Source of the DNA: Arenicola marina
Taxonomy: Eukaryota; Annelida; Polychaeta; Arenicolidae
Length of the DNA stretch: 64,000 nucleotides
Direction: 5' to 3'
Assembly: GCA_964019135.1 (NCBI GenBank)
Contig: OZ025265.1
Location: forward strand, 24,093,143 to 24,157,142
The notes below the pieces were generated by a model. That model was not told the origin of the DNA. It did not search any database and worked only from the letters and a program-made list of their open reading frames with translations. Shown here piece by piece: positions 2,205 to 64,000 of this stretch; the first letter of the stretch is position 1; each line of letters opens with the position of its first letter. The translations under genes and the position numbers were made by a program.

Positions 2205-2350
2205 ACAGACTGAACACATGCCCGCTAAACTGGGCCAAGGAACCTTCAGGGACGATGAATGATGAAATGGATGAGAGATGTCCCAGAAATAGGTACCCAC
2301 CGTCGGGTTCGAACCTAGCACTATTGATCTATGGTCTAGTGTGCTATTCC
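2205..2350 (-). mobile_element. tRNA-derived SINE, family 2, copy A (old)
   Basis: On the minus strand a B box (GGTTCGAACCC, complement of 2305-2316) follows an A-box-like region. The flanking sequence aligns with the SINE at 48310-48450: shared landmarks are AAACTG(A/G)GCCAA, GACGATGAA(C/T)GATG, TTCGAAC and ATTGATCT followed by TCTAGTG(C/T)GC(C/T)AT. Divergence from the other copies suggests an old insertion. No target duplication was found. Confidence 0.6.
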
Positions 2351-11611: not shown

Positions 11612-13174
11612 ACTGGGCGGGAGGGGGCGCTAGAAGGCTGGGACAGAGGTGTGGAAGCGAGGGTGGGATAGAGAGAGGGCGGGAGACGGCGCTAGAAGGC
11701 TGGGACAGAGGTGTGGAAGAGAGGGTGGGATAGAGAGAGGGCGGGAGGCGGCGCTAGAAGGCTGGGACAGAGGTGTGGAAGAGAGGGTGGGATAGAGAGA
11801 GGGCGGAAGACGGCGCTGGAAGGCTGGGACAGAGGTGTGGAAGAGAGAGTGGGATAGAGAGAGGGCGGGAGACGGCGCTGGAAGGCTGGGACAGAGGTGT
11901 GGAAGAGAGGGTGGGATAGAGAGAGGGCGGGAGACGACGCTGGAAGGCTGGGACAGAGGTGTGAAAGAGAGGGTGGGATAGAGAGAGGGCGGGAGACGGC
12001 GCTGGAAGGCTGGGACAGAGGTGTGGAAGAGAGGGTGGGATAGAGAGAGGGCGGGAGACGGCGCTGGAAGGCTGGGACAGAGGTGTGGAAGCGAGGGTGG
12101 GATAGAGAGAGGGCGGGAGGCGGCGCTAGAAGGCTGGGACAGAGGTGTGGAAGAGAGGGTGGGATAGAGAGAGGGCGGGAGACGACGCTGGAAGGCTGGG
12201 ACAGAGGTGTGGAAGAGAGGGTGGGATAGAGAGAGGGCGGGAGACGGCGCTAGAAGGCTGGGACAGAGGTGTGGAAGAGAGGGTGGGATAGAGAGAGGGC
12301 GGGAGACGACGCTGGAAGGCTGGGACAGAGGTGTAGAAGAGAGGGTGGGATAGAGAGAGGGCGGGAGACGGCGCTAGAAGGCTGGGACAGAGGTGTGAAA
12401 GAGAGGGTGGGATAGAGAGAGGGCGGGAGGCGGCGCTGGAAGGCTGGGACAGAGGTGTGGAAGAGAGGGTGGGATAGAGAGAGGGCGGGAGAAGGCGCTA
12501 GAAGGCTAGGACAGAGGTGTGAAAGAGAGGGTGGGATAGAGAGAGGGCGGGAGACGGCGCTAGAAGGCTGGGACAGAGGTGTGGAAGAGAGAGTGGGATA
12601 GAGAGAGGGCGGGAGACGGCGCTAGAAGGCTGGGACAGAGGTGTGGAAGAGAGGGTGGGATAGAGAGAGGGCGGGAGACGGCGCTAGAAGGCTGGGACAG
12701 AGGTGTGGAAGAGAGGGTGGGATAGAGAGAGGGCGGGAGGAGGCGCTAGAAGGCTAGGACAGAGGTGTGGAAGAGAGGGTGGGATAGAGAGAGGGCGGGA
12801 GACGGCGCTAGAAGGCTGGGACAGAGGTGTGGAAGAGAGAGTGGGATAGAGAGAGGGCGGGAGACGGCGCTAGAAGGCTGGGACAGAGGTGTGGAAGAGA
12901 GGGTGGGATAGAGAGAGGGCGGGAGACGGCGCTGGAAGGCTGGGACAGAGGTGTGAAAGAGAGGGTGGGATAGAGAGAGGGCGGAAGACGGCGCTAGAAG
13001 GCTGGGACAGAGGTGTGAAAGAGAGGGTGGGATAGAGAGAGGGCGGGAGACGGCGCTAGAAGGCTGGGACAGAGGTGTGGAAGAGAGAGTGGGATAGAGA
13101 GAGGGCGGGAGACGGCGCTAGAAGGCTGGGACAGAGGTGTGGAAGAGAGGGTGGGATAGAGAGAGGGCGGAAGA
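11612..13174. repeat. 62-bp satellite array (array 1)
   Basis: About 25 head-to-tail units with landmarks GGGCGGGAGACGGCGCTAG, AAGGCTGGGACAGAGGTGTG and AAGAGAGGGTGGGATAGAGA; TGGGACAG recurs exactly every 62 bp (11701, 11763 and onward). Variation is confined to a few positions (CTAGA/CTGGA, GGAGAC/GGAGGC, GTGGAA/GTGAAA). Unrelated in sequence to the 62-bp array at 48.4 kb. Strongly purine-biased on the plus strand. Confidence 0.97.
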
Positions 13175-13480
13175 AGGCGGGGGAACGGGAGAGGGAGGGG
13201 ATATAGAAGGAGATAATGATATATTGAGGCAAAGGGGGGAATGGGGAGAGATATCGAGAGAGGGGAGGGACGATAGTTCGAGGCAGGGGATGGAAGAGAG
13301 ATAAGAAGGGGAGGGGAGAGAGATGGTGACAGGAGCGGGACAGAGAGAGACGGGAATATATAGGCAGATGGGGGGGGGGGTATTGACAGCGAGATAGACA
13401 GAGTGAGAGAGACAGAGTGAGAAAGACAGAGTGAGCGGGAGACAGAATGAAAGAGACAGACAGAGCGAGGGAGTTAAAGC
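13175..13480. repeat. purine-rich GAGA-type flank
   Basis: GAGA/GGGA-rich simple sequence continuing from the 62-bp array, with a G-run at 13371-13380. Part of a long minus-strand open frame that is repeat-derived downstream of the candidate exon. Confidence 0.7.
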
Positions 13481-15111: not shown

Positions 15112-15235
15112 TCGCGCATTTAGACAAACCATAATCTGGGCCAATGAAATGAGGTACGATGACAAACACATGGTGCAGATGCCGGGCTTCGAACCCACGA
15201 CCTGTTGATCTGCATCTCAGCCAACTTACAAATTG
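15112..15235 (-). mobile_element. tRNA-derived SINE, family 2, copy B
   Basis: The minus strand carries a perfect B box (GGGTTCGAAGCCC, complement of 15185-15197) preceded by a tRNA-like A-box region. Landmarks shared with the other family-2 copies are CTGGGCCAATGAAA, a GATGACAAAC motif and GTTGATCTGC. It lies just beyond the heptamer array. Confidence 0.6.
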
Positions 15236-38137: not shown

Positions 38138-40737
38138 TTGTGGTTGTGGTTGTGGTTGTGGTTGTGGTTTATTTGGTCTTGAAGGCCTTAAGGCCCAAAT
38201 GACACAACATATAATTATACAATCAGTTTGCATGGTGCGCAGTATTTTGAGAAACATACATTTACGTGGTAGAACAGAGACGATTTTCAATAAGATATAT
38301 ACACATTGCCAAATTCCTCAGGGTCGTTACATCATTATGACACATTAGGGTCCGAAAGAGATCAAATGTTGGAGGGTTCCAAAATATAGAATCAATATAT
38401 ATTTTACGAATATCCGCGAACTTGGTGCAACACAACAAAACATGAAATTCATCCTCGATAACGGTAACACCGATTCCCAGGCAGTAGGTACAAAGCCTGT
38501 CTGCTAGTAGGGTGCCATCGCGACGTCCCAACTCGACAGAAAGCTTATGTGCAGAACAGCGAAATCGACAAAGCGCCTTTCGTAGTTTAACAATATTAAC
38601 TTTACACAAATATGATTCCAGTTGGAGGCTATCTTTAAAGGTACAGTACACGCTTAAGCGACTCTGGTTTCGTGCCTGCATAGACCATTCGGCCTTCATG
38701 TCCTGGTCTAGTTTTGCAGCGAAATCGGTCAAGAAACTACCTTCAATGATTGTTGTTTGATTTTGCCATGTGTCATTAAAATTGTATTTTTTTAACAATT
38801 CTCTTATTGAGGTAACCCAAGTTATTCTGTTATTTTCATCTAGTAGCGTTAACATGACATAACAACAATTGGCATATCTGTCGTCACTCATTCTTAATAA
38901 CTTTAACCAGTATTTAATGCATCTTACATGATAAATCTTTGCTAGCGGGTACCTGCCGCATTCACCCAGGGCAGCTGCATCAGCCGTGTGAGCAGGAAGC
39001 CCCAAGAGTCGTTTGCAAAATCTAATTTGAACTTTTTCGATTACCTTATACTCTTTAAACCCCCATATTTCAGAGCCGTACGTTAATATTGGAGTGATTA
39101 TTCTGTCGAATAAAGTAAAGGCTATATCTACAGGGAGACCGTGTGTTTTCTTGGCTAACTGGTAGATGCTAGACAGCGCTCTGTTGGCTTGTGCAGCTAA
39201 CGTTGCTACAGCTGACCAGCTAAGTGTACTTGTAAAGACAATACCTAAATATTTATAGGATGAAACAACAGCTATTTTCTTACCTTGAAAAAACCACTTT
39301 TCGTTGGCCATAACAATACCACCTCTTCTGAATACTAGTACTCTGGTTTTATCCATGTTCACCTTTAAACCCCACTTGTCACAGAACGTTTCTAAGATAT
39401 CTAGGCTCTTCTGAAGCCTACCGACAGTATCAGCGCAGTTAGCCAAATCATCTGCAAACATTAACGTAATAATATTGGGTGCACCATCATTGATGAAAAT
39501 TCCAGGACAATGTGCAGATTTGAGCATCGTCACATATTCCTCAATATACAACGCAAATAAAAGGGGGCTTAACATACATCCCTGACGGGTTCCATTCGTG
39601 CATCCAAAATAAGTTGTTAATCCATCTCTCGTTTTAACGCATGCTTTCAAATTACCATACATGGACCGAATTACAGTTATTACATTGCCGTGCATACCTT
39701 TACCAATTAAGCTATACCATAAGGAACTATGTGGAATACTGTCAAAGGCTTTTGAAAAGTCGACAAAAGCTACATAGCATCTCCCCTTTTCTCTAGATAA
39801 ATATTTCTGAATAATTGATTGAAGAACAAACATCTGGTCGATGGTAGAATAGCCCTTCCTATACCCTGCCTGTTCCTCTGAACGCAGGCCATTTAGATCA
39901 ACCCATTCGGTTAGCCTGTTATTTAGTAGTTTAGTGAATAGCTTGCTAAATGACGATAAGAGCGATATACCTCTGTAGTTATTCATGTCAGTCATTGAAC
40001 CTTTCTTATGAAGAGGGAGAATTAGAGCTTGGCACCAGCTTTCTGGAAATTTACCAGTCTGCAATATTAAGTTAAAAAGACGAACTATGTAAGGTGTCAA
40101 CTGATATGCTACTGCTTTAAACATTTCATTGGGTAAACCATCATACCCCGAGGCTTTTCCGTTTGGTAGTTCCTGTATACACTGGAGGACTTCACATGCA
40201 TTAAATGGTCTATTTAGATTATCCCTATCCATGCCCTCTTGACAAGTAATACAATTCTCATCATGGCTGGACAGAAAGGTTTTTAATTCTGTCTGGAACT
40301 CCACGTTAGTTTGATCAATAGAGTCATTTAATAAGGCTTGGAAATACACTTTCCAACTCTCAGCCGGAATACTACAGCGGTTCTCCTTCCTACCCTGAAG
40401 GTTCTTAATACATTTCCAAAAAGCACTACAATCTGTACTGGTATCGATAAGTTTTTGCTGTAGTGCGCGCGCGAACTGATGTTTCTTTGCTCTACAGACA
40501 TTTTTAAACACCCTACGTGCAGTTCTATATGCGGTTACAGCCTCCGGTGAGTCTACCCGGCGCATCAAACCAAGTGCGTCTCGTTTGCTACACTTCGCTC
40601 TCTCGCAGTCTCTATCCCACCATTCTGGCTGTGAACATGTGCTACTGACCTTGGGGACACTTTTTGTTTGGCGCATACTGCTACCACTACGATAAAGAAT
40701 ATCTAATATTAAATTTACTAAATTTTCCGCATTCCCC
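38138..40737 (-). mobile_element. 5'-truncated LINE (non-LTR retrotransposon)
   Basis: Minus-strand element. Its 3' end is at the left, with the 3' UTR followed by AATAAA and a CCACAA hexamer tail (complement of 38138-38168). The 5' end is truncated near 40737, inside the linker before the reverse transcriptase, so the endonuclease is missing. Flanks on the two sides match for about 71 bp (38067-38137 and 40738-40808), consistent with a long target duplication within the CRE-containing array, although array similarity could imitate this. The open frame is intact across the whole retained part, so the copy is fairly young. Confidence 0.88.
38262..40737 (-). CDS. LINE ORF2 fragment: linker, reverse transcriptase and C-terminal zinc knuckle
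   Basis: About 820 codons are open from the truncation point to the stop at 38262. Numbering from the first Met at 40676, the reverse transcriptase motifs are NGKASGYDG (172-180), NNYRGISLL (232-240), FVDFSKAFD (304-312, catalytic Asp306), TRQGCMLSPLLF (363-374), MFADD (406-410, catalytic Asp409-Asp410) and KYLGI (475-479). The C terminus has a typical LINE knuckle: C729-x2-C732, then H745 and C749/C750, after an HKLSVELGR motif (710-718). Full-length ORF2 proteins carry an N-terminal APE endonuclease that this copy lacks; the frame simply continues about 20 codons upstream of the Met to the 5' junction. Clade is probably Jockey/CR1/I-like but not resolved. No functional host role is implied. 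Confidence 0.93.
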
Positions 40738-48255: not shown

Positions 48256-48309
48256 GCGAATAATGCATTAGGCCAAACAAAATTAATTAGTGTTTTAGGC
48301 CGCTGTTGT

Positions 48310-48468
48310 GCAATTAAAGGATAAACTGAGCCAAATGGACATCCCGCGACGATGAACGATGCATAGATGAAGCTTTGCCAGACACGGATTCGAACGTGGG
48401 ACTTATTGATCTGCCGTCTAGTGCGCCATAACCACTACCAAGGGGAGGACGGCTGCATGCTGGGGAAA
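48310..48468 (-). mobile_element. tRNA-derived SINE, family 2, copy C: founder of the 62-bp satellite
   Basis: On the minus strand the order is 5' flank, A-box-like TGGTAGTGGTTATGG (complement of 48424-48438), anticodon-arm region, B box (CGTTCGAATCC, complement of 48387-48397), then the SINE body (TTCATC, TCGTCG, GGCTCAGTTTA). The A-box segment resembles eukaryotic tRNA heads such as the Glu/Asp type (AGTGGTTA). The first satellite monomer, 48407-48468, is the A-box half of this SINE; the B box is single copy and remains outside the array. Confidence 0.75.
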
Positions 48469-51400
48469 TGATCTGCCGTCTAGTGCGCCATAACCACTAC
48501 CAAGGGGAGGACGGCTGCATGCTGGGGAAATGATCTGCCGTCTAGTGCGCCATAACCACTACCAAGGGGAGGACGGCTGCATGCTGGGGAAATGATCTGC
48601 CGTCTAGTGCGCCATAACCACTACCAAGGGGAGGACGGCTGCATGCTGGGGAAATGATCTGCCGTCTAGTGCGCCATAACCACTACCAAGGGGAGGACGG
48701 CTGCATGCTGGGGAAATGATCTGCCGTCTAGTGCGCCATAACCACTACCAAGGGGAGGACGGCTGCATGCTGGGGAAATGATCTGCCGTCTAGTGCGCCA
48801 TAACCACTACCAAGGGGAGGACGGCTGCATGCTGGGGAAATGATCTGCCGTCTAGTGCGCCATAACCACTACCAAGGGGAGGACGGCTGCATGCTGGGGC
48901 AATGATCTGCCGTCCAGTGCACCATAACCACTACCAAGGGGAGGACGGCTGCATGCTGGGGAACTGATCTGCCGTCTAGTGCGCCATAACCACTACCAAG
49001 GGGAGGACGGCTGCATGCTGGGGCAATGATCTGCCGTCCAGTGCACCATAACCACTACCAAGGAGAGGACGGCTGCATGCTGGGGAAATGATCTGCCGTC
49101 TAGTGCGCCATAACCACTACCAAGGGGAGGACGACTGCATGCTGGGAAAATGATCTGCCGTCTAGTGCGCCATAACCACTACCAAGGAGAGGACGGCTGC
49201 ATGCTGGGGAAATGATCTGTCGTCTAGTGCGCCATAACCACTACCAAGGGGAGGACGGCTGCATGCTGGGGCAATGATCTGCCGTCTAGTGCGCCATAAC
49301 CACTACCAAGGAGAGGACGGCTGCATGCTGGGGAAATGATCTGCCGTCTAGTGCGCCATAACCACTACCAAGGAGAGGACGGCTGCATGCTGGGGAAATG
49401 ATCTGTCGTCTAGTGCGCCATAACCACTACCAAGGGGAGGACGGCTGCATGCTGGGGCAATGATCTGCCGTCTAGTGCGCCATAACCACTACCAAGGAGA
49501 GGACGGCTGCATGCTGGGGAAAAGATCTGCCGTCTAGTGCGCCATAACCACTACCAAGGAGAGGACGGCTGCATGCTGGGGAAATGATCTGTCGTCTAGT
49601 GCGCCATAACCACTACCAAGGGGAGGACGGCTGCATGCTGGGGCAATGATCTGCCGTCTAGTGCGCCATAACCACTACCAAGGGGAGGACGGCTGCATGC
49701 TGGGTCAATGATCTGCCGTCCAGTGCGCCATAACCACTACCAAGGGGAGGACGGCTGCATGCTGGGGCAATGATCTGCCGTCCAGTGCACCATAACCACT
49801 ACCAAGGGGAGGACGGCTGCATGCTGGGGCAATGATCTGCCGTCTAGTGCGCCATAACCACTACCAAGGGGAGGACGGCTGCATGCTGGGGCAATGATCT
49901 GCCGTCCAGTGCGCCATAACCACTACCAAGGGGAGAAAGGCTGCATGCTGGGGCAATGATCTGCCGTCTAGTGCGCCATAACCACTACCAAGGGGAGGAC
50001 GGCTGCATGCTGGGGAAATGATCTGCCGTCTAGTGCGCCATAACCACTACCAAGGGGAGGACGGCTGCATGCTGGGGAAATGATCTGCCGTCTAGTGCGC
50101 CATAACCACTACCAAGGGGAGGACGACTGCATGCTGGGAAAATGATCTGCCGTCTAGTGCGCCATAACCACTACCAAGGAGAGGACGGCTGCATGCTGGG
50201 GAAATGATCTGTCGTCTAGTGCGCCATAACCACTACCAAGGGGAGGACGGCTGCATGCTGGGGCAATGATCTGCCGTCTAGTGCGCCATAACCACTACCA
50301 AGGAGAGGACGGCTGCATGCTGGGGAAATGATCTGCCGTCTAGTGCGCCATAACCACTACCAAGGAGAGGACGGCTGCATGCTGGGGAAATGATCTGTCG
50401 TCTAGTGCGCCATAACCACTACCAAGGGGAGGACGGCTGCATGCTGGGGCAATGATCTGCCGTCTAGTGCGCCATAACCACTACCAAGGGGAGGACGGCT
50501 GCATGCTGGGTCAATGATCTGCCGTCCAGTGCGCCATAACCACTACCAAGGGGAGAAAGGCTGCATGCTGGGGCAATGATCTGCCGTCTAGTGCGCCATA
50601 ACCACTACCAAGGGGAGGACGGCTGCATGCTGGGGAAATGATCTGCCGTCTAGTGCGCCATAACCACTACCAAGGGGAGGACGGCTGCATGCTGGGGAAA
50701 TGATCTGCCGTCTAGTGCGCCATAACCACTACCAAGGGGAGGACGGCTGCATGCTGGGGAAATGATCTGCCGTCTAGTGCGCCATAACCACTACCAAGGG
50801 GAGGACGGCTGCATGCTGGGGAAATGATCTGCCGTCTAGTGCGCCATAACCACTACCAAGGGGAGGACGGCTGCATGCTGGGGCAATGGTCTGCCGTCTA
50901 GTGCGCCATAACCACTACCAAGGGGAGGACGACTGCATGCTGGGAAAATGATCTGCCGTCTAGTGCGCCATAACCACTACCAAGGAGAGGACGGCTGCAT
51001 GCTGGGGCAATGATCTGCCGTCCAGTGCGCCATAACCACTACCAAGGGGAGGACGGCTGCATGCTGGGGCAATGATCTGCCGTCCAGTGCGCCATAACCA
51101 CTACCAAGGGGAGGACGGCTGCATGCTGGGGCAATGATCTGCCGTCTAGTGCGCCATAACCACTACCAAGGGGAGGACGGCTGCATGCTAGGGCAATGAT
51201 CTGCCGTCTAGTGCGCCATAACCACTACCAAGGGGAGGACGGCTGCATGCTGGGGCAATGATCTGCCGTCTAGTGCGCCATAACCACTACCAAGGGGAGG
51301 ACGGCTGCATGCTGGGTCAATGATCTGCCGTCTGGTGCGCCATAACCACTACCAAGGGGAGGACGGCTGCATGCTGGGTCAATGATCTGCCGTCTAGTGC

Positions 51401-54400
51401 GCCATAACCACTACCAAGGGGAGGACGGCTGCATGCTGGGGAAATGATCTGCCGTCTGGTGCGCCATAACCAATACCAAGGGGAGGACGGCTGCATGCTG
51501 GGGCAATGATCTGCCGTCCAGTGCACCATAACCACTACCAAGGGGAGGACGGCTGCATGCTGGGGAAATGATCTGCCGTCTAGTGCGCCATAACCACTAC
51601 CAAGGGGAGGACGGCTGCATGCTGGGGCAATGATCTGCCGTCTAGTGCGCCATAACCACTACCAAGGGGAGGACGGCTGCATGCTGGGGCAATGATCTGC
51701 CGTCTAGTGCGCCATAACCACTACCAAGGGGAGGACGGCTGCATGCCGGGGCAATGGTCTGCCGTCCAGTGCACCATAACCACTACCAAGGGGAGGACGG
51801 CTGCATGCTGGGGCAATGATCTGCCGTCTAGTGCGCCATAACCACTACCAAGGGGAGGACGGCTGCATGCTGGGGCAATGATCTGCCGTCCAGTGCGCCA
51901 TAACCACTACCAAGGGGAGGACGGCTGCATGCTGGGGCAATGATCTGCCGTCCAGTGCACCATAACCACTACCAAGGGGAGGACGGCTGCATGCTGGGGC
52001 AATGATCTGCCGTCTAGTGCGCCATAACCACTACCAAGGGGAGGACGGCTGCATGCTGGGGCAATGATCTGCCGTCCAGTGCGCCATAACCACTACCAAG
52101 GGGATAAAGGCTGCATGCTGGGTCAATGATCTGCCGTCTGGTGCGCCATAACCACTACCAAGGGGAGGACGGCTGCATGCTGGGGCAATGATCTGCCGTC
52201 CAGTGCACCATAACCACTACCAAGGGGAGGACGGCTGCATGCTGGGGCAATGATCTGCCGTCTAGTGCGCCATAACCACTACCAAGGGGAGGACGGCTGC
52301 ATGTTGGGGCAATGATCCGCCGTCCAGTGCACCATAACCACTACCAAGGGGAGGACGGCTGCATGCTGGGGCAATGATCTGCCGTCCAGTGCGCCATAAC
52401 CACTACCAAGGGGAGGACGGCTGCATGCTGGGGCAATGATCTGCCGTCCAGTGCACCATAACCACTACCAAGGGGAGGACGGCTGCATGCTGGGGCAATG
52501 ATCTGCCGTCTAGTGCGCCATAACCACTACCAAGGGGAGGACGGCTGCATGCTGGGGCAATGATCTGCCGTCCAGTGCACCATAACCACTACCAAGGGGA
52601 GGACGGCTGCATGCTGGGGCAATGATCTGCCGTCTAGTGCGCCATAACCACTACCAAGGGGAGGACGGCTGCATGCTGGGGAAATGATCTGCCGTCCAGT
52701 GCGCCATAACCACTACCAAGGGGAGGACGGCTGCATGCTGGGGCAATGATCTGCCGTCTAGTGCGCCATAACCACTACCAAGGGGAGGACGGCTGCATGC
52801 TCGGGAAATGATCTGCCGTCCAGTGCGCCATAACCACTACCAAGGGGAGAAAGGCTGCATGCTGGGGCAATGATCTGCCGTCTAGTGCGCCATAACCACT
52901 ACCAAGGGGAGGACGGCTGCATGCTGGGGCAATGATCTGCCGTCTAGTGCGCCATAACCACTACCAAGGGGAGGACGGCTGCATGCTGGGGAAATGATCT
53001 GCCGTCTAGTGCGCCATAACCACTACCAAGGGGAGGACGGCTGCATGCTGGGTCAATGATCTGCCGTCTAGTGCGCCATAACCACTACCAAGGGGAGGAC
53101 GGCTGCATGCTGGGGCAATGATCTGCCGTCTAGTGCGCCATAACCACTACCAAGGGGAGGACGGCTGCATGCTGGGGCAATGATCTGCCGTCTAGTGCGC
53201 CATAACCACTACCAAGGGGAGGACGGCTGCATGCTGGGGCAATGATCTGCCGTCTAGTGCGCCATAACCACTACCAAGGGGAGGACGGCTGCATGCTGGG
53301 GCAATGATCTGCCGTCTAGTGCGCCCTAACCACTACCAAGGGGAGGACGGCTGCATGCTGGGGCAATGATCTGCCGTCTAGTGCGCCATAACCACTACCA
53401 AGGGGAGGACGGCTGCATGCTGGGGCAATGATCTGCCGTCTAGTGCGCCATAACCACTACCAAGGGGAGGACGGCTGCATGCTGGGGCAATGATCTGCCG
53501 TCTAGTGCGCCATAACCACTACCAAGGGGAGGACGGCTGCATGCTGGGGCAATGATCTGCCGTCTAGTGCGCCATAACCACTACCAAGGGGAGGACGGCT
53601 GCATGCTGGGGCAATGATCTGCCGTCTAGTGCTCCCTAACCACTACCAAGGGGAGGACGGCTGCATGCTGGGTCAATGATCTGCCGTCTAGTGCGCCATA
53701 ACCACTACCAAGGGGAGGACGGCTGCATGCTGGGGCAATGATCTCCCGTCTAGTGCGCCATAACCACTACCAAGGGGAGGACGGCTGCATGCTGGGGCAA
53801 TGATCTGCCGTCTAGTGCGCCATAACCACTACCAAGGGGAGGACGGCTGCATGCTGGGGCAATGATCTCCCGTCTAGTGCGCCATAACCACTACCAAGGG
53901 GAGGACGGCTGCATGCTGGGGCAATGATCTGCCGTCTAGTGCGCCATAACCACTACCAAGGGGAGGACGGCTGCATGCTGGGGAAATGATCTGCCGTCTA
54001 GTGCGCCATAACCACTACCAAGGGGAGGACGGCTGCATGCTGGGGCAATGATCTCCCGTCTAGTGCGCCCTAACCACTACCAAGGGGAGGACGGCTGCAT
54101 GCTGGGGCAATGATCTGCCGTCTAGTGCGCCATAACCACTACCAAGGGGAGGACGGCTGCATGCTGGGGAAATGATCTGCCGTCTAGTGCGCCATAACCA
54201 CTACCAAGGGGAGGACGGCTGCATGCTAGGGCAATGATCTGCCGTCTGGTGCGCCATAACCACTACCAAGGGGAGGACGGCTGCATGCTGGGGCAATGAT
54301 CTGCCGTCTAGTGCGCCATAACCACTACCAAGGGGAGGACGGCTGCATGCTGGGGCAATGATCTGCCGTCTAGTGCGCCATAACCACTACCAAGGGGTGG

Positions 54401-57400
54401 ACGGCTGCATGCTGGGTCAATGATCTGCCGTCTGGTGCGCCATAACCACTACCAAGGGGAGGACGGCTGCATGCTGGGTCAATGATCTGCCGTCTAGTGC
54501 GCCATAACCACTACCAAGGGGAGGACGGCTGCATGCTGGGGAAATGATCTGCCGTCTGGTGCGCCATAACCACTACCAAGGGGAGGACGGCTGCATGCTG
54601 GGGCAATGATCTGCCGTCCAGTGCACCATAACCACTACCAAGGGGAGGACGGCTGCATGCTGGGGCAATGATCTGCCGTCTAGTGCGCCATAACCACTAC
54701 CAAGGGGAGGACGGCTGCATGCTGGGGCAATGATCTTCCGTCTAGTGCGCCATAACCACTACCAAGGGGAGGACGGCTGCATGCTGGGGAAATGATCTGC
54801 CGTCCAGTGCGCCATAACCACTACCAAGGGGAGGACGGCTGCATGCTGGGGCAATGATCTGCCGTCTAGTGCGCCATAACCAGTACCAAGGGGAGGACGG
54901 CTGCATGCTGGGGCAATGATCTGCCGTCTAGTGCGCCATAACCACTACCAAGGGGAGGACGGCTGCATGCTGGCACAATAATCTGCCGTCTAGTGCGCCA
55001 TAACCACTACTAAGGGGAGGACGGCTGCATGCTGGGGCAATGATCTGCCGTCTAGTGCGCCATAACCACTACCAAGGGGAGGACGGCTGCATGCTGGGGC
55101 AATGATCTGCCGTCCAGTGCGCCATAACCACTACCAAGGGGAGGACGGCTGCATGCTGGGGCACAGATCTGCCGTCTAGTGCGCCATAACCACTACCAAG
55201 GGGAGGACGGCTGCATGCTGGGGAAATGATCTGCCGTCCAGTGCGCCATAACCACTACCAAGGGGAGGACGGCTGCATGCTGGGGCAATGATCTGTCGTC
55301 TAGTGCGCCATAACCACTACCAAGGGGAGGACGGCTGCATGCTGGGGCAATAATCTGCCGTCTAGTGCGCCATAACCACTACCAAGGGGAGAAAGGCTGC
55401 ATGCTGGGGCAATGATCTGCCGTCCAGTGCGCCATAACCACTACCAAGGGGAGGACGGCTGCATGCTGGGGCAATGATCTGCCGTCCAGTGCGCCATAAC
55501 CACTACCAAGGAGAGGACGGCTGCATGCTGGGGCAATGATCTGCCGTCTAGTGCGCCATAACCACTACCAAGGGGAGGACGGCTGCATGCTGGGGCAATG
55601 ATCTGCCGTCTAGTGCGCCATAACCACTACCAAGGGGAGGACGGCTGCATGCTGGGGCAATAATCTGCCGTCTAGTGCGCCATAACCACTACCAAGGGGA
55701 GGACGGCTGCATGCTGGGGCAATGATCTGCCGTCTAGTGCGCCATAACCACTACCAAGGGGAGGACGGCTGCATGCTGGGGCAATGATCTGCCGTCTAGT
55801 GCGCCATAACCACTACCAAGGGGAGGACGGCTGCATGCTGGGGCAATGATCTGCCGTCTAGTGCGCCATAACCACTACCAAGGGGAGGACGGCTGCATGC
55901 TGGGGCAATAATCTGCCGTCTAGTGCGCCATAACCACTACCAAGGGGAGGACGGCTGCATGCTGGGGCAATAATCTGCCGTCTAGTGCGCCATAACCACT
56001 ACCAAGGGGAGGACGGCTGCATGCTGGGGCAATGATCTGCCGTCTAGTGCGCCATAACCACTACCAAGGGGAGGACGGCTGCATGCTGGGGCAATGATCT
56101 GCCGTCCAGTGCGCCATAACCACTACCAAGGGGAGGACGGCTGCATGCTGGGGCAATGATCTGCCGTCCAGTGCGCCATAACCACTACCAAGGGGAGGAC
56201 GGCTGCATGCTGGGGCAATGATCTGCCGTCTAGTGCGCCATAACGACTACCAAGGGGAGGACGGCTGCATGCTGGGGCAATGATCTGCCGTCTAGTGCGC
56301 CATAACCACTACCAAGGGGAGAAAGGCTGCATGCTGGGGCAATGATCTGCCGTCCAGTGCGCCATAACCAATACCAAGGGGAGGACGGCTGCATGCTGGG
56401 GCAATGATCTGCCGTCCAGTGCGCCATAACCACTACCAAGGAGAGGACGGCTGCATGCTGGGGCAATGATCTGCCGTCTAGTGCGCCATAACCACTACCA
56501 AGGGGAGGACGGCTGCATGCTGGGGCAATGATCTGCCGTCTAGTGCGCCATAACCACTACCAAGGGGAGGACGGCTGCATGCTGGGGCAATAATCTGCCG
56601 TCTAGTGCGCCATAACCACTACCAAGGGGAGGACGGCTGCATGCTGGGGCAATGATCTGCCGTCTAGTGCGCCATAACCACTACCAAGGGGAGGACGGCT
56701 GCATGCTGGGGCAATGATCTGCCGTCTAGTGCGCCATAACCACTACCAAGGGGAGGACGGCTGCATGCTGGGGCAATGATCTGCCGTCTAGTGCGCCATA
56801 ACCACTACCAAGGGGAGGACGGCTGCATGCTGGGGCAATAATCTGCCGTCTAGTGCGCCATAACCACTACCAAGGGGATTACGGCTGCATGCTGGGGCAA
56901 CGATCTGCCGTCTAGTGCGCCATAACCACTACCAAGGGGAGGACGGCTGCATGCTGGGGCAATGATCTGCCGTCCAGTGCGCCATAACCACTACCAAGGG
57001 GAGGACGGCTGCATGCTGGGGCAATGATCTGCCGTCCAGTGCGCCATAACCACTACCAAGGGGAGGACGGCTGCATGCTGGGGCAATGATCTGCCGTCTA
57101 GTGCGCCATAACGACTACCAAGGGGAGGACGGCTGCATGCTGGGGCAATGATCTGCCGTCTAGTGCGCCATAACCACTACCAAGGGGAGGACGGCTGCAT
57201 GCTGGGGAAATGATCTGCCGTCTAGTGCGCCATAACCACTACCAAGGGGAGGACGGCTGCATGCTAGGGCAATGATCTGCCGTCTAGTGCGCCATAACCA
57301 CTACCAAGGGGAGGACGGCTGCATGCTGGGGCAATGATCTGCCGTCTAGTGCGCCATAACCACTACCAAGGGGAGGACGGCTGCATGCTGGGTCAATGAT

Positions 57401-60400
57401 CTGCCGTCTGGTGCGCCATAACCACTACCAAGGGGAGGACGGCTGCATGCTGGGTCAATGATCTGCCGTCTAGTGCGCCATAACCACTACCAAGGGGAGG
57501 ACGGCTGCATGCTGGGGAAATGATCTGCCGTCTGGTGCGCCATAACCACTACCAAGGGGAGGACGGCTGCATGCTGGGGCAATGATCTGCCGTCTAGTGC
57601 ACCATATCCACTACCAAGGGAGGACGGCTGCATGCTGGGGAAATGATCTGCCGTCTAGTGCGCCATAACCACTACCAAGGGGAGGACGGCTGCATGCTGG
57701 GGCAATGATCTGCCGTCTAGTGCGCCATAACCACTACCAAGGGGAGGACGGCTGCATGCTGGGGCAATGATCTGCCGTCCAGTGCGCCATAACCACTACC
57801 AAGGGGAGGACGACTGCATGCTGGGTCAATGATCTGCCGTCCAGTGCGCCATAACCACTACCAAGGGGAGGACGGCTGCATGCTGGGGCAATGATCTGCC
57901 GTCTAGTGCGCCATAACCACTACCAAGGGGAGGACGGCTGCATGCTCGGGAAATGATCTGCCGTCCAGTGCGCCATAACCACTACCAAGGGGAGAAAGGC
58001 TGCATGCTGGGGCAATGATCTGCCGTCTAGTGCGCCATAACCACTACCAAGGGGAGGACGGCTGCATGCTGGGGCAATGATCTGCCGTCTAGTGCGCTAT
58101 AACCACTACCAAGGGGAGGACGGCTGCATGCTGGGGAAATGATCTGCCGTCTAGTGCGCCATAACCACTACCAAGGGGAGGCAGGCTGCATGCTGGGGAA
58201 ATGATCTGCCGTCTAGTGCGCCATAACCACTACCAAGGGGAGGACGGCTGCATGCTGGGGAAATGATCTGCCGTCTAGTGCGCCACAACCACTACCAAGG
58301 GGAAGACGGCTGCATGCTGGGGCAATGATCTGCCGTCTAGTGCGCCATAACCACTACCAAGGGGAGGACGGCTGCATGCTGGGGCAATGATCTGCCGTCT
58401 AGTGCGCCATAACCACTACCAAGGGGAGGACGGCTGCATGCTGGGGCAATGATCTGCCGTCTAGTGCGCCATAACCACTACCAAGGGGAGGACGGCTGCA
58501 TGCTGGGGCAATGATCTGCCGTCTAGTGCGCCATAACCACTACCAAGGGGAGGACGGCTGCATGCTGGGGCAATGATCTGCCGTCTAGTGCGCCATAACC
58601 ACTACCAAGGGGAGGACGGCTGCATGCTGGGGCAATGATCTGCCGTCTAGTGCGCCATAACCACTACCAAGGGGAGGACGGCTGCATGCTGGGGCAATGA
58701 TCTGCCGTCTAGTGCGCCATAACCACTACCAAGGGGAGGACGGCTGCATGCTGGGGCAATGATCTGCCGTCTAGTGCTCCCTAACCACTACCAAGGGGAG
58801 GACGGCTGCATGCTGGGTCAATGATCTGCCGTCTAGTGCGCCATAACCACTACCAAGGGGAGGACGGCTGCATGCTGGGGCAATGATCTCCCGTCTAGTG
58901 CGCCATAACCACTACCAAGGGGAGGACGGCTGCATGCTGGGGCAATGATCTGCCGTCTAGTGCGCCATAACCACTACCAAGGGGAGGACGGCTGCATGCT
59001 GGGGCAATGATCTCCCGTCTAGTGCGCCATAACCACTACCAAGGGGAGGACGGCTGCATGCTGGGGCAATGATCTGCCGTCTAGTGCGCCATAACCACTA
59101 CCAAGGGGAGGACGGCTGCATGCTGGGGAAATGATCTGCCGTCTAGTGCGCCATAACCACTACCAAGGGGAGGACGGCTGCATGCTGGGGCAATGATCTC
59201 CCGTCTAGTGCGCCCTAACCACTACCAAGGGGAGGACGGCTGCATGCTGGGGCAATGATCTGCCGTCTAGTGCGCCATAACCACTACCAAGGGGAGGACG
59301 GCTGCATGCTGGGGAAATGATCTGCCGTCTAGTGCGCCATAACCACTACCAAGGGGAGGACGGCTGCATGCTAGGGCAATGATCTGCCGTCTGGTGCGCC
59401 ATAACCACTACCAAGGGGAGGACGGCTGCATGCTGGGGCAATGATCTGCCGTCTAGTGCGCCATAACCACTACCAAGGGGAGGACGGCTGCATGCTGGGG
59501 CAATGATCTGCCGTCTAGTGCGCCATAACCACTACCAAGGGGTGGACGGCTGCATGCTGGGTCAATGATCTGCCGTCTGGTGCGCCATAACCACTACCAA
59601 GGGGAGGACGGCTGCATGCTGGGTCAATGATCTGCCGTCTAGTGCGCCATAACCACTACCAAGGGGAGGACGGCTGCATGCTGGGGAAATGATCTGCCGT
59701 CTGGTGCGCCATAACCACTACCAAGGGGAGGACGGCTGCATGCTGGGGCAATGATCTGCCGTCCAGTGCACCATAACCACTACCAAGGGGAGGACGGCTG
59801 CATGCTGGGGCAATGATCTGCCGTCTAGTGCGCCATAACCACTACCAAGGGGAGGACGGCTGCATGCTGGGGCAATGATCTTCCGTCTAGTGCGCCATAA
59901 CCACTACCAAGGGGAGGACGGCTGCATGCTGGGGAAATGATCTGCCGTCTAGTGCGCCATAACCACTACCAAGGGGAGGACGGCTGCATGCTGGGGCAAT
60001 GATCTGCCGTCTAGTGCGCCATAACCAGTACCAAGGGGAGGACGGCTGCATGCTGGGGCAATGATCTGCCGTCTAGTGCGCCATAACCACTACCAAGGGG
60101 AGGACGGCTGCATGCTGGCACAATAATCTGCCGTCTAGTGCGCCATAACCACTACTAAGGGGAGGACGGCTGCATGCTGGGGCAATGATCTGCCGTCTAG
60201 TGCGCCATAACCACTACCAAGGGGAGGACGGCTGCATGCTGGGGCAATGATCTGCCGTCCAGTGCGCCATAACCACTACCAAGGGGAGGACGGCTGCATG
60301 CTGGGGCAATGATCTGCCGTCTAGTGCGCCATAACCACTACCAAGGGGAGGACGGCTGCATGCTGGGGAAATGATCTGCCGTCCAGTGCGCCATAACCAC

Positions 60401-63400
60401 TACCAAGGGGAGGACGGCTGCATGCTGGGGCAATGATCTGTCGTCTAGTGCGCCATAACCACTACAAAGGGGAGGACGGCTGCATGCTGGGGCAATAATC
60501 TGCCGTCTAGTGCGCCATAACCACTACCAAGGGGAGAAAGGCTGCATGCTGGGGCAATGATCTGCCGTCCAGTGCGCCATAACCACTACCAAGGGGAGGA
60601 CGGCTGCATGCTGGGGCAATGATCTGCCGTCCAGTGCGCCATAACCACTACCAAGGAGAGGACGGCTGCATGCTGGGGCAATGATCTGCCGTCTAGTGCG
60701 CCATAACCACTACCAAGGGGAGGACGGCTGCATGCTGGGGCAATGATCTGCCGTCTAGTGCGCCATAACCACTACCAAGGGGAGGACGGCTGCATGCTGG
60801 GGCAATAATCTGCCGTCTAGTGCGCCATAACCACTACCAAGGGGAGGACGGCTGCATGCTGGGGCAATGATCTGCCGTCTAGTGCGCCATAACCACTACC
60901 AAGGGGAGGACGGCTGCATGCTGGGGCAATGATCTGCCGTCTAGTGCGCCATAACCACTACCAAGGGGAGGACGGCTGCATGCTGGGGCAATGATCTGCC
61001 GTCTAGTGCGCCATAACCACTACCAAGGGGAGGACGGCTGCATGCTGGGGCAATAATCTGCCGTCTAGTGCGCCATAACCACTACCAAGGGGAGGACGGC
61101 TGCATGCTGGGGCAATAATCTGCCGTCTAGTGCGCCATAACCACTACCAAGGGGAGGACGGCTGCATGCTGGGGCAATGATCTGCCGTCTAGTGCGCCAT
61201 AACCACTACCAAGGGGAGGACGGCTGCATGCTGGGGCAATGATCTGCCGTCCAGTGCGCCATAACCACTACCAAGGGGAGGACGGCTGCATGCTGGGGCA
61301 ATGATCTGCCGTCCAGTGCGCCATAACCACTACCAAGGGGAGGACGGCTGCATGCTGGGGCAATGATCTGCCGTCTAGTGCGCCATAACGACTACCAAGG
61401 GGAGGACGGCTGCATGCTGGGGCAATGATCTGCCGTCTAGTGCGCCATAACCACTACCAAGGGGAGAAAGGCTGCATGCTGGGGCAATGATCTGCCGTCC
61501 AGTGCGCCATAACCACTACCAAGGGGAGGACGGCTGCATGCTGGGGCAATGATCTGCCGTCCAGTGCGCCATAACCACTACCAAGGAGAGGACGGCTGCA
61601 TGCTGGGGCAATGATCTGCCGTCTAGTGCGCCATAACCACTACCAAGGGGAGGACGGCTGCATGCTGGGGCAATGATCTGCCGTCTAGTGCGCCATAACC
61701 ACTACCAAGGGGAGGACGGCTGCATGCTGGGGCAATAATCTGCCGTCTAGTGCGCCATAACCACTACCAAGGGTAGGACGGCTGCATGCTGGGGCAATGA
61801 TCTGCCGTCTAGTGCGCCATAACCACTACCAAGGGGAGGACGGCTGCATGCTGGGGCAATGATCTGCCGTCTAGTGCGCCATAACCACTACCAAGGGGAG
61901 GACGGCTGCATGCTGGGGCAATGATCTGCCGTCTAGTGCGCCATAACCACTACCAAGGGGAGGACGGCTGCATGCTGGGGCAATAATCTGCCGTCTAGTG
62001 CGCCATAACCACTACCAAGGGGAGGACGGCTGCATGCTGGGGCAACGATCTGCCGTCTAGTGCGCCATAACCACTACCAAGGGGAGGACGGCTGCATGCT
62101 GGGGCAATGATCTGCCGTCCAGTGCGCCATAACCACTACCAAGGGGAGGACGGCTGCATGCTGGGGCAATGATCTGCCGTCCAGTGCGCCATAACCACTA
62201 CCAAGGGGAGGACGGCTGCATGCTGGGGCAATGATCTGCCGTCTAGTGCGCCATAACGACTACCAAGGGGAGGACGGCTGCATGCTGGGGCAATGATCTG
62301 CCGTCTAGTGCGCCATAACCACTACCAAGGGGAGGACGGCTGCATGCTGGGGAAATGATCTGCCGTCTAGTGCGCCATAACCACTACCAAGGGGAGGACG
62401 GCTGCATGCTAGGGCAATGATCTGCCGTCTAGTGCGCCATAACCACTACCAAGGGGAGGACGGCTGCATGCTGGGGCAATGATCTGCCGTCTAGTGCGCC
62501 ATAACCACTACCAAGGGGAGGACGGCTGCATGCTGGGTCAATGATCTGCCGTCTGGTGCGCCATAACCACTACCAAGGGGAGGACGGCTGCATGCTGGGT
62601 CAATGATCTGCCGTCTAGTGCGCCATAACCACTACCAAGGGGAGGACGGCTGCATGCTGGGGAAATGATCTGCCGTCTGGTGCGCCATAACCACTACCAA
62701 GGGGAGGACGGCTGCATGCTGGGGCAATGATCTGCCGTCCAGTGCACCATATCCACTACCAAGGGAGGACGGCTGCATGCTGGGGAAATGATCTGCCGTC
62801 TAGTGCGCCATAACCACTACCAAGGGGAGGACGGCTGCATGCTGGGGCAATGATCTGCCGTCTAGTGCGCCATAACCACTACCAAGGGGAGGACGGCTGC
62901 ATGCTGGGGCAATGATCTGCCGTCCAGTGCGCCATAACCACTACCAAGGGGAGGACGACTGCATGCTGGGTCAATGATCTGCCGTCAAGTGCGCCATAAC
63001 CACTACCAAGGGGAGGACGGCTGCATGCTGGGGCATTGATCTGCCGTCCAGTGCACCATAACCACTACCAAGGGGAGGACGGCTGCATGCTGGGGCAATG
63101 ATCTGCCGTCTAGTGCGCCATAACCACTACCAAGGGGAGGACGGCTGCATGCTGGGGCAATGATCTGCCGTCTAGTGCGCCATAACCACTACCAAGGGGA
63201 GGACGGCTGCATGCTGGGGCAATGATCTGCCGTCCAGTGCGCCATAACCACTACCAAGGAAAGGACGGCTGCATGCTGGGGCAATGATCTGCCGTCTAGT
63301 GCGCCATAACCACTACCAAGGGGAGGACGGCTGCATGCTGGGGCAATGATCTGCCGTCCAGTGCGCCATAACCACTACCAAGGGGAGGACGGCTGCATGC

Positions 63401-64000
63401 TGGGGCAACGATCTGCCGTCCAGTGCGCCATAACCACTACCAAGGGGAGGACGGCTGCATGCTGGGGCAATGATCTGCCGTCTAGTGCGCCATAACCACT
63501 ACCAAGGGGAGGACGGCTGCATGCTGGGGCAATGATCTGCCGTCCAGTGCGCCATAACCACTACCAAGGAGAGGACGGCTGCATGCTGGGGCAATGATCT
63601 GCCGTCCAGTGCGCCATAACCACTACCAAGGGGAGGACGGCTGCATGCTGGGGCAATGATCTGCCGTCCAGTGCGCCATAACCACTACCAAGGGGAGGAT
63701 GGCTGCATGCTGGGGCAATGATCTGCCGTCTAGTGCGCCATAACCACTACCAAGCGGAGGACGGCTGCATGCTGGGGAAATGATCTGCCGTCTAGTGCGC
63801 CATAACCACTACCAAGGGGAGGACGGCTGCATGCTAGGGCAATGATCTGCCGTCTAGTGCGCCATAACCACTACCAAGGGGAGGACAGCTGCATGCTGGG
63901 GCAATGATCTGCCGTCCAGTGCGCCATAACCACTACCAAGGAGAGGACGGCTGCATGCTGGGGCAATGATCTGCCGTCCAGTGCGCCATAAGCACTACCA
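48407..64000. repeat. 62-bp satellite array (array 2), about 251 monomers, runs off the window
   Basis: Unit landmarks: TGATCTGCCGTCTAGTGCGC, CATAACCACTACCAAGGGGA, GGACGGCTGCATGCTGGGG followed by AAA or CAA. Spacing is exactly 62 bp almost throughout (48407, 48469, 48531 and onward), with one 61-bp variant monomer (ATATCCACTACCAAGGG then AGG) at about 57604 and again at 62749. Variants are few: CTAGTGCG/CCAGTGCG/CCAGTGCA, GGGAGG/GGAGAGG/GGGAGAAAGG, GGGGAAA/GGGGCAA/GGGTCAA. Translation gives only repetitive frames with a 62-residue period. No end is visible inside the window. Confidence 0.98.
52690..62980. repeat. 83-monomer tandem duplication within array 2
   Basis: Rare variants recur with an offset of 5,145 bp: GCTCGGGAAATG (52799 and 57944), GCTCCCTAAC (53631 and 58776), TGGCACAATA (54971 and 60116), TAACGACTAC (56241 and 61386; 57109 and 62254), and the 61-bp monomer (57604 and 62749). 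83 monomers at 62 bp are 5,146 bp, and one 1-bp deletion lies in the interval. Copies are nearly identical while neighbouring monomers differ, the sign of a recent multi-monomer duplication. Confidence 0.9.

What the first reader, a model, noticed from the sequence alone, without database searches (positions are those of the whole stretch)
48310..64000. A giant satellite made from the A-box half of a tRNA-derived SINE
The first monomer of the 62-bp array lies within a tRNA-derived SINE (minus strand), and the monomer equals SINE 5' flank plus A box plus the start of the anticodon arm. The B box (48387-48397) stays single copy at the array edge. Related SINE copies at 2205-2350 and 15112-15235 carry the same landmarks without amplification, so the SINE came first. 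The result is about 250 A-box half promoters in a row with one B box at the border. Whether such half promoters recruit TFIIIC, act as insulators, or are inert is unknown.
Basis: partly seen in the sequence, partly recalled or inferred. Interest (0 to 1): 0.78.

Follow-up and report, generated by a model that had tools for sequence, protein, structure and literature searches.

The report
Satellite grown from half a SINE
A 16.5-kilobase tandem repeat in an invertebrate genome appears to have grown from the front half of a small retrotransposon plus a little neighbouring DNA; the same half has formed other arrays in that genome, often inside otherwise intact insertions, which gives a readable record of how mobile DNA can turn into satellite DNA.

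Summary
The 62-bp array is real: 266 units at window 48407-64896 (past the window end), abutting the B-box side of an old tRNA-derived SINE. Each unit is about 42 bp of SINE head plus about 20 bp that read as host flank. Its junction occurs nowhere else in the genome (264 of 264 matches lie here), so it was probably born locally by a DNA duplication and then grew by unequal exchange (a 75-unit block is duplicated). No unit keeps a strict A box and none has a B box; I favour an inert array. The wider result: a related young SINE is present in thousands of copies (20 of 20 sampled are single-headed), but 66 places carry two or more heads. Of 30 multi-head places tested, 18 have perfect target-site duplications of 11 bp or more (1 of 870 mismatched pairs). 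Among three junction registers tested, the one restarting from the exact SINE 5' end dominates (66:7:0). This points to end-jumping by the reverse transcriptase at insertion, then DNA expansion. SINE-derived satellites are already known, so this is a new variant.

The parts
48287..48448 (-). Old tRNA-derived SINE copy (3' side at 48287, 5' head at 48448); its head is the first part of unit 1
   Evidence: Local alignment to the consensus of 20 sampled genomic SINE copies, score 125, shuffle max 28
48387..48397 (-). B box (CGTTCGAATCC on the SINE strand, one mismatch to GGTTCGANTCC), single copy at the array edge
   Evidence: Motif scan; consensus recalled
48407..64000 (-). 62-bp tandem array, part inside the window (array continues to 64896; 266 units in all)
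   Evidence: TRF; unit walk over window plus L012
48407..48448 (-). SINE-derived part of unit 1 (42 bp: 5' end to start of the anticodon arm)
   Evidence: Alignment
48449..48468 (.). Part of unit 1 without SINE match (20 bp; reads as host DNA 5' of the SINE); at the far end of the array it runs on into other DNA
   Evidence: GGGGCAATGACGTTATG at the far end
53181..57829 (.). 75-unit block, first copy of an internal segmental duplication
   Evidence: 66 of 75 units identical at a lag of 83 units; score 52.5, max of 200 order shuffles 7
58326..62974 (.). 75-unit block, second copy
2215..2346 (-). Related SINE copy, cut short in the head, not amplified

Best explanation
The array is a SINE-derived satellite. 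Shown by sequence: an old tRNA-derived SINE sits at the edge; the unit is its head plus about 20 bp beyond the SINE match; the junction is unique to this locus; the array holds a segmental duplication. Inferred: one 62-bp tandem duplication joined the 5' flank (AATGA|CG) to the SINE interior (ATTGA|TCTG) at a shared TGA, in DNA and after insertion (Pol III RNA would not carry upstream flank); unequal exchange then raised it to 266 units; it has no function of its own. In the same genome the related young SINE shows a second route: extra heads that restart from the SINE's 5' end, often inside target-site duplications. I read this as the LINE reverse transcriptase finishing the SINE RNA, re-annealing the CCC end of the cDNA to the GGG of the T-arm and copying the head again (inferred), followed by DNA-level expansion (shown by higher-order repeats).
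For: 62-bp junction pattern: 264 matches in the genome, 0 on the other strand, reversed control 0; the same scan of window plus L012 gives 264. Junction and flank reading. Segmental duplication. Young SINE: 20 of 20 sampled exact-match copies single-headed, 14 of these 20 with a TSD of 8 bp or more. 66 places with two or more heads against 2265 with at least one whole head. Head numbers 2 to 80 in 30 places. Perfect TSDs of 11-15 bp in 18 of these 30, against 1 of 870 mismatched flank pairs. Junction register: five Cs 66, four Cs 7, three Cs 0, although each has the same 3-nt match (chi-square p 3e-24 against equal use). Two other acceptors in the SINE gave 0 and 1 place. Higher-order blocks in L046 and L059. 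In L068 six of six heads share one private substitution, so there the heads are self-copies.
Against: The TGA microhomology is only 3 nt (chance about 0.05). No TSD was found around the window SINE (longest shared string 5 bp), so its exact 5' end, and the SINE-flank border in the unit, are uncertain. The register test covers copies within 3 mismatches and three registers only; junctions in flanking DNA, as in the window array, were not surveyed. Equal use of the registers is my assumption, and a run of Cs can change length later. Microhomology length alone does not explain the chosen acceptor: one with a longer C match gave 0 places (one register tested). The 66 places are not all separate loci (four lie within 1.1 kb on C20). 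12 of 30 multi-head places have no TSD of 11 bp or more. Long arrays were reshaped in DNA, so birth is seen only in the 2- and 3-headed copies. Three of five 2-headed copies share body variants (L050, L051, L055) and may descend from a two-headed source.
Confidence: 0.7

Rival explanations
1. All arrays, 62-bp and 54-bp, arise only by DNA-level slippage or unequal crossing-over after insertion; the reverse transcriptase plays no part.
For: Expansion in DNA is shown for long arrays. The window array includes apparent host flank. The genome is rich in minisatellites: 22% of the window outside the array and 33% of 20 SINE neighbourhoods lie in TRF arrays.
Against: For the 54-bp arrays, slippage should use the three C registers about equally (my assumption), but 66:7:0 was found. 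The base after the SINE end is never A in 16 tabulated loci, so longer flank homology does not explain the bias.
Confidence: 0.35
2. A two-headed (or many-headed) source SINE is transcribed from its outer head and retrotransposes; the shared junction is inherited.
For: L050, L051 and L055, all two-headed, share body variants; 4 of 58 exact copies of that subfamily are multi-headed against 62 of 2207 others (Fisher p 0.086).
Against: 54 of the 58 exact copies of that subfamily are not among the 66 multi-head places (lists compared by eye); multi-heads occur with several body variants; in L068 and L064 the heads share a private substitution.
Confidence: 0.25
3. The array is a functional platform: A-box half promoters that recruit TFIIIC or act as an insulator, with the single B box as a border.
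For: Units derive from a Pol III promoter region. Passages of PMC4226948 say that TFIIIC targets A and B boxes, and that only 348 (14.5%) of extra-TFIIIC sites in Drosophila hold the B-box motif, so lack of a B box does not rule TFIIIC out. One-mismatch A-box sites occur about twice per unit.
Against: No strict A box in 266 units and no B box in the array; the one-mismatch sites lie off the D-arm position and shuffled units reach the same number (maximum 2 per unit); the unit is private to one locus.
Confidence: 0.06
4. Rolling-circle reverse transcription of a circular RNA made the arrays, as proposed for retrozymes.
For: Tandem copies, with TSDs when present, are reported for animal retrozymes, and tandem cDNA copies are proposed (passages of PMC7229834).
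Against: Only the 5' part of the SINE is repeated while the body stays single copy; no Rfam family reached its gathering score in the window; the 54-bp loci were not put through Rfam.
Confidence: 0.05

Closest known systems
SINE-derived satellites (sSats) of squamate reptiles (PMC10702118; parts 1-4 of 5 of the text read)
   Same: Tandem units made from part of a tRNA-related SINE; a longer terminal unit at one end runs to the SINE terminus; a few to hundreds of units; subvariants alternate; several unit types in some genomes
   Different: Here the unit is the 5' head, restarting from the SINE's end; TSDs flank many arrays; the window array seems to carry host flank; the host is an invertebrate. 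A find in that paper for 'box A', 'template', 'reverse transcript', 'TSD' and 'target site' gave 0 each
PcH-sat of the limpet Patella caerulea (PMC11121367; passages read, abstract among them)
   Same: Invertebrate satellite with a SINE2/tRNA-derived segment
   Different: 179-bp unit with a segment of the 3' part of Nin-SINE, mainly pericentromeric, about 10% of the genome; [quoted passage not shown]
Animal non-LTR retrozymes (PMC7229834; passages read)
   Same: Non-autonomous non-LTR elements in tandem copies; tandem cDNA at insertion is proposed
   Different: Whole unit with hammerhead ribozyme, 150-450 bp; here only a 54-bp head is repeated and no ribozyme family was found in the window
Template switching in SINE formation (PMC3272025, passages) and R2 end-to-end template jumping (Bibillo and Eickbush 2004, seen only as a reference entry in PMC2881922)
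   Same: A reverse transcriptase continues on a second template
   Different: Here the inferred jump is from the RNA 5' end to an internal GGG of SINE RNA, repeatedly; not tested biochemically
Hy/Pol III, OAX (Xenopus satellite 1) and similar amphibian repeats (as described in PMC10702118 and in passages of PMC9659126)
   Same: Tandem families with a tRNA-related region
   Different: Their SINE link is doubted in PMC10702118; here TSD-flanked SINE copies of a related family exist in the same genome

Membership tests
SINE-derived satellite (sSat) | Tandem unit derived from part of a SINE present in the same genome | tested here: met
   Monomer score 51 against shuffle max 22; SINE family 5194 matches
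SINE-derived satellite (sSat) | Terminal unit extends towards a SINE terminus on one side | tested here: met
   SINE body and B box at the left edge; far end runs into other DNA
SINE-derived satellite (sSat) | At least four middle units, homogeneous in long arrays | tested here: met
   266 units, 98.2% to consensus
SINE-derived satellite (sSat) | Subtelomeric preference | not tested
   Array at 24.14 Mb of a 33.05-Mb contig; no map of centromere or telomeres made
tRNA-derived SINE | Pol III A and B boxes in a tRNA-like head | tested here: inconclusive
   Window copy: B box with one mismatch, A box degenerate. The sampled young consensus carries TGGTGTAGTGG and GGTTCGAATCC, fitting both recalled consensi (sequence)
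tRNA-derived SINE | Target-site duplications | tested here: inconclusive
   None at the window copy (longest shared string 5 bp); 14 of 20 sampled young copies have one, and 18 of 30 multi-head places
tRNA-derived SINE | 3' tail shared with a partner LINE | not tested
   A LINE-type reverse transcriptase ORF lies in the window, but no tail comparison was made
TFIIIC-bound site | A and/or B box sequence | tested here: inconclusive
   No strict A box, no B box in the array; one-mismatch A sites about two per unit
TFIIIC-bound site | TFIIIC occupancy | not testable with these tools
   No ChIP data
Retrozyme | Hammerhead ribozyme in each unit | tested here: not met
   No Rfam match at gathering score in the window; the other loci were not scanned

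The most novel reading that the evidence does not exclude
A LINE reverse transcriptase performs telomerase-like repeat addition on SINE RNA: on reaching the RNA's 5' end it slips its CCC end back onto an internal GGG and copies the 54-nt head again, so satellite seeds of two or more identical heads are born within a single retrotransposition event, inside the target-site duplication, and then expand in DNA.
Probability: 0.38. Interest if true: 0.8.

Novelty: new variant of a known kind. Interest (0 to 1): 0.52.

Why it matters
How satellites start is hard to read because old arrays tend to erase their beginnings. Here one genome shows two birth routes with junctions still legible: a one-off DNA duplication that seems to have taken host flank with it (the window array), and a recurrent head duplication anchored at the SINE end within young insertions, from 2 heads to 80. 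If the end-jump reading holds, retrotransposition itself produces satellite seeds, by a step like that of telomerase, and this could be tested by insertion polymorphism or in a cell assay.

Tried and rejected
Rejected or put low: A-box platform (odds raised from 0.04 to 0.06 on re-reading, which says that few extra-TFIIIC sites in Drosophila hold a B box); retrozyme; a fixed two-headed subfamily (4 of 58). ARAGORN, with the bacterial code, found no tRNA in the window. The search with the window SINE as DNA listed no match in this array itself among the matches shown; the tool says it skips very common words, so counts were taken by pattern. Two other acceptors gave 0 and 1 place with 3 mismatches; only the five-C register was asked for each. 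Rows dropped: in the divergence count loci with fewer than 3 heads, L061-L064 and units not 54 bp long, and two body columns that define subfamilies. In the end-base table five of 21 loci (L045, L061-L064) were left out, and the letters were entered by hand. One search miscounted heads (a faulty expression) and is replaced. In one search the walk began one base late, so first units print as 53; mended. One search missed units for a like reason and is replaced. One search failed on a missing file and was repeated.
Full report
WHAT IS THERE. TRF reports one 62-bp array from 48407 to the end of the window, 251.5 copies, 96% matches. The window lies at G000:C20:24093143-24157142 of an 867-Mb assembly. 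The next stretch, L012, overlaps the window by 643 bases and carries the array on to window coordinate 64896. Walking the units gives 266 (264 of 62 bp, 2 of 61), 64 distinct sequences, mean 98.2% to the consensus.

THE SINE LINK. A consensus of SINE copies from 20 genomic places was made. The window stretch 48287-48448 aligns to it from the 3' side through the B box to the 5' head, score 125; the best of 300 dinucleotide shuffles scores 28. The monomer alone scores 51 against 22. 42 of 62 bp are SINE head; 20 bp have no SINE match. At the far end those 20 bp run on into other DNA (GGGGCAATGACGTTATG), so they are best read as the old 5' flank of the SINE. The unit junction is CAATGATCTG; flank AATGA|CG and SINE ATTGA|TCTG share TGA. 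Such a 3-nt overlap has a chance of about 0.05, so the microhomology is suggestive, not proof. No TSD was found around this SINE (longest shared string 5 bp), so its exact 5' end is not fixed.

The copy at 2205-2350 is a real relative (120 against 24) but its head stops short. The copy at 15112-15235 matches over 43 nt around the B box only (47 against 24). Against the 62-bp monomer neither exceeds shuffles (21 against 23, 16 against 22). So the statement that they carry the same landmarks holds for the B-box region only.

IS THE MONOMER FOUND ELSEWHERE? A 33-base junction pattern of the 62-bp unit with up to 3 mismatches has 264 matches in the whole genome, all on one strand, reversed control 0. 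The same scan of window plus L012 finds 264. The 62-bp junction is private to this locus.

HOW IT GREW. Unit order shows a 75-unit block (53181-57829) repeated at 58326-62974: 66 of 75 units identical, score 52.5, the highest of 200 order shuffles 7. That is DNA-level unequal exchange or a like process.

DOES IT LOOK FUNCTIONAL? No strict A-box match (consensus recalled) lies in the array of 266 units, and no B box even with one substitution. With one substitution allowed, A-box matches number 522, about two per unit; they lie 7 and 13 bases past the start of the D-arm piece TTGGTAGTGG, and shuffled units average 0.54 with a maximum of 2. The 54-bp arrays are different: strict A boxes number 61, 53 and 71 in L010, L011 and L016 (about 104, 71 and 69 units), B boxes 0, so 'A-box half promoters' describes those better. 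Passages of PMC4226948 say that TFIIIC targets A and B boxes, map a B-box-binding subunit, and count the B-box motif in 348 (14.5%) of extra-TFIIIC sites in Drosophila; lack of a B box alone does not rule out TFIIIC. I still favour an inert array.

THE SAME HEAD ELSEWHERE. One search returned arrays on several chromosomes with a 54-bp spacing. A 28-base head-to-head junction pattern (up to 3 mismatches) has 12,894 matches (8058 and 4836 by strand; control 0). The B-box-to-head pattern has 5194, the B box plus a whole head 2265. In 20 of 20 sampled exact-match copies on C1 there is one head, cut short in a few; 14 of these 20 show a TSD of 8 bp or more.

MULTI-HEADED SINES. An 80-base pattern (B box, head 1, start of head 2) has 66 matches, control 0; four of them lie within 1.1 kb on C20, so they are not 66 separate loci. 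I read 30 of the 66 (L016, L017, L045-L064, L066-L071, L073, L074) and one of the four-C class (L072). L016 was not tested for TSDs because its array runs off the locus. In the other 30 places (29 of the 66 plus L072) head numbers run from 2 to 80; L066 is a lower bound, its array being cut by the stretch. Perfect TSDs of 11-15 bp flank body plus heads in 18 of 30; the same finder on 870 mismatched flank pairs reaches 11 bp once. L059 has 80 heads inside a TSD of 14 bp. L017 shows the whole element, ten heads, inserted in an unrelated 27-bp satellite with the TSD GGATTCGCAGGGA. Twelve of the 30 lack such a TSD; some have older, divergent bodies.

ANCHORED AT THE SINE END. The junction joins GGCCCCC (SINE 5' end) to AGGACC (just before the B box), sharing CCC with the inner GAACCCAGGACC. 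Three registers have the same 3-nt match. Counts within 3 mismatches: five Cs 66, four Cs 7, three Cs 0; chi-square p 3e-24 against equal use, equal use being my assumption. The base after the SINE end is T, C or G in 16 of 16 loci tabulated, never A (five of 21 left out), so longer flank homology does not explain the bias. Two other acceptors were tested in the five-C register: one in the body with a longer C match, 0 places, and one that would put the B box in the unit, 1 place with 3 mismatches. So microhomology length alone does not choose the acceptor; this counts against the simplest form of either model. Junctions of other kinds were not surveyed. Multi-heads are not a subfamily trait: of 58 exact copies of one variant, 4 coincide with the 66 (lists compared by eye), and multi-heads occur with several body variants. 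In L068 six of six heads carry one private substitution, and in L064 three of three do: there the heads are self-copies.

AFTER BIRTH. Long arrays were reshaped in DNA: L046 shows a five-unit block several times over, L059 an eight-unit block twice, L017 an interior variant missing from the first and last unit. In 13 loci with three or more heads, units 2 and later differ from the consensus at 320 of 14,094 sites, the bodies at 4 of 1571; in 12 of 13 loci units exceed body, none the other way, one tie, Wilcoxon p 0.0005. Units share ancestry, so these counts are not independent; amplification looks mutagenic, but variants brought in from other arrays are not excluded.

KNOWN OR NEW. SINE-derived satellites are described in squamates (PMC10702118, parts 1-4 of 5 read) and a SINE-related satellite in a limpet (PMC11121367, passages). 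A recent review lists SINEs among satellite sources (PMC12692304, passages). The kind is known. What I did not find in my ten paper searches is an end-anchored head amplification inside TSDs; the library is partial, two of those searches returned nothing and one dealt with TFIIIC. The host is an invertebrate by its mitochondrial code, so outside the reptiles.

VERDICT. The window array is a private, probably inert satellite born from an old SINE head plus flank. The more interesting point lies outside the window: a young SINE family that repeatedly gains extra heads at its 5' end and so seeds satellites.

Noticed in passing
window 38262-40676, minus strand: An open 804-aa frame with a reverse transcriptase domain (Pfam RVT_1, E 1.3e-36); LINE-1 ORF2 and R2 proteins are among the nearest solved structures: a LINE-type retrotransposon.
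   Followed up: partly
window 11615-13179: A second array with the same 62-bp period (25 copies, 95%) but another, G-rich unit sequence.
   Followed up: no
window 1-48406: The window is rich in minisatellites: 22% outside the finding lies in TRF arrays, 33% in 20 sampled SINE neighbourhoods on C1.
   Followed up: partly
L009:3577-3884: A 77-bp tandem array (4 copies) whose unit looks by eye like a whole tRNA-like sequence, with a TTCGAA B-box core and an A-box-like stretch, next to a single-headed SINE.
   Followed up: no
L009:4441-6597, L015:1922-3870, L023:2806-3530: 54-bp head arrays without a recognisable SINE body directly on the B-box side; they may have lost it or moved without it.
   Followed up: no
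L010:2903-8524, L011:3486-7352, L016:1-3729: 54-bp arrays that keep strict A boxes in many units (61, 53, 71 matches) but no B box: a better case for half promoters than the window array.
   Followed up: no
G000:C1:64746757-64749336: Head-to-head junction matches spaced by multiples of 58 bp, suggesting an array with a 58-bp unit.
   Followed up: no
L060, L054: Arrays that mix 53-bp and 54-bp units differing by one C at the junction.
   Followed up: partly
L026, L027, L041, L043: Single-headed SINE copies with one or two extra bases between the 5' end and the TSD, as untemplated additions would leave.
   Followed up: no
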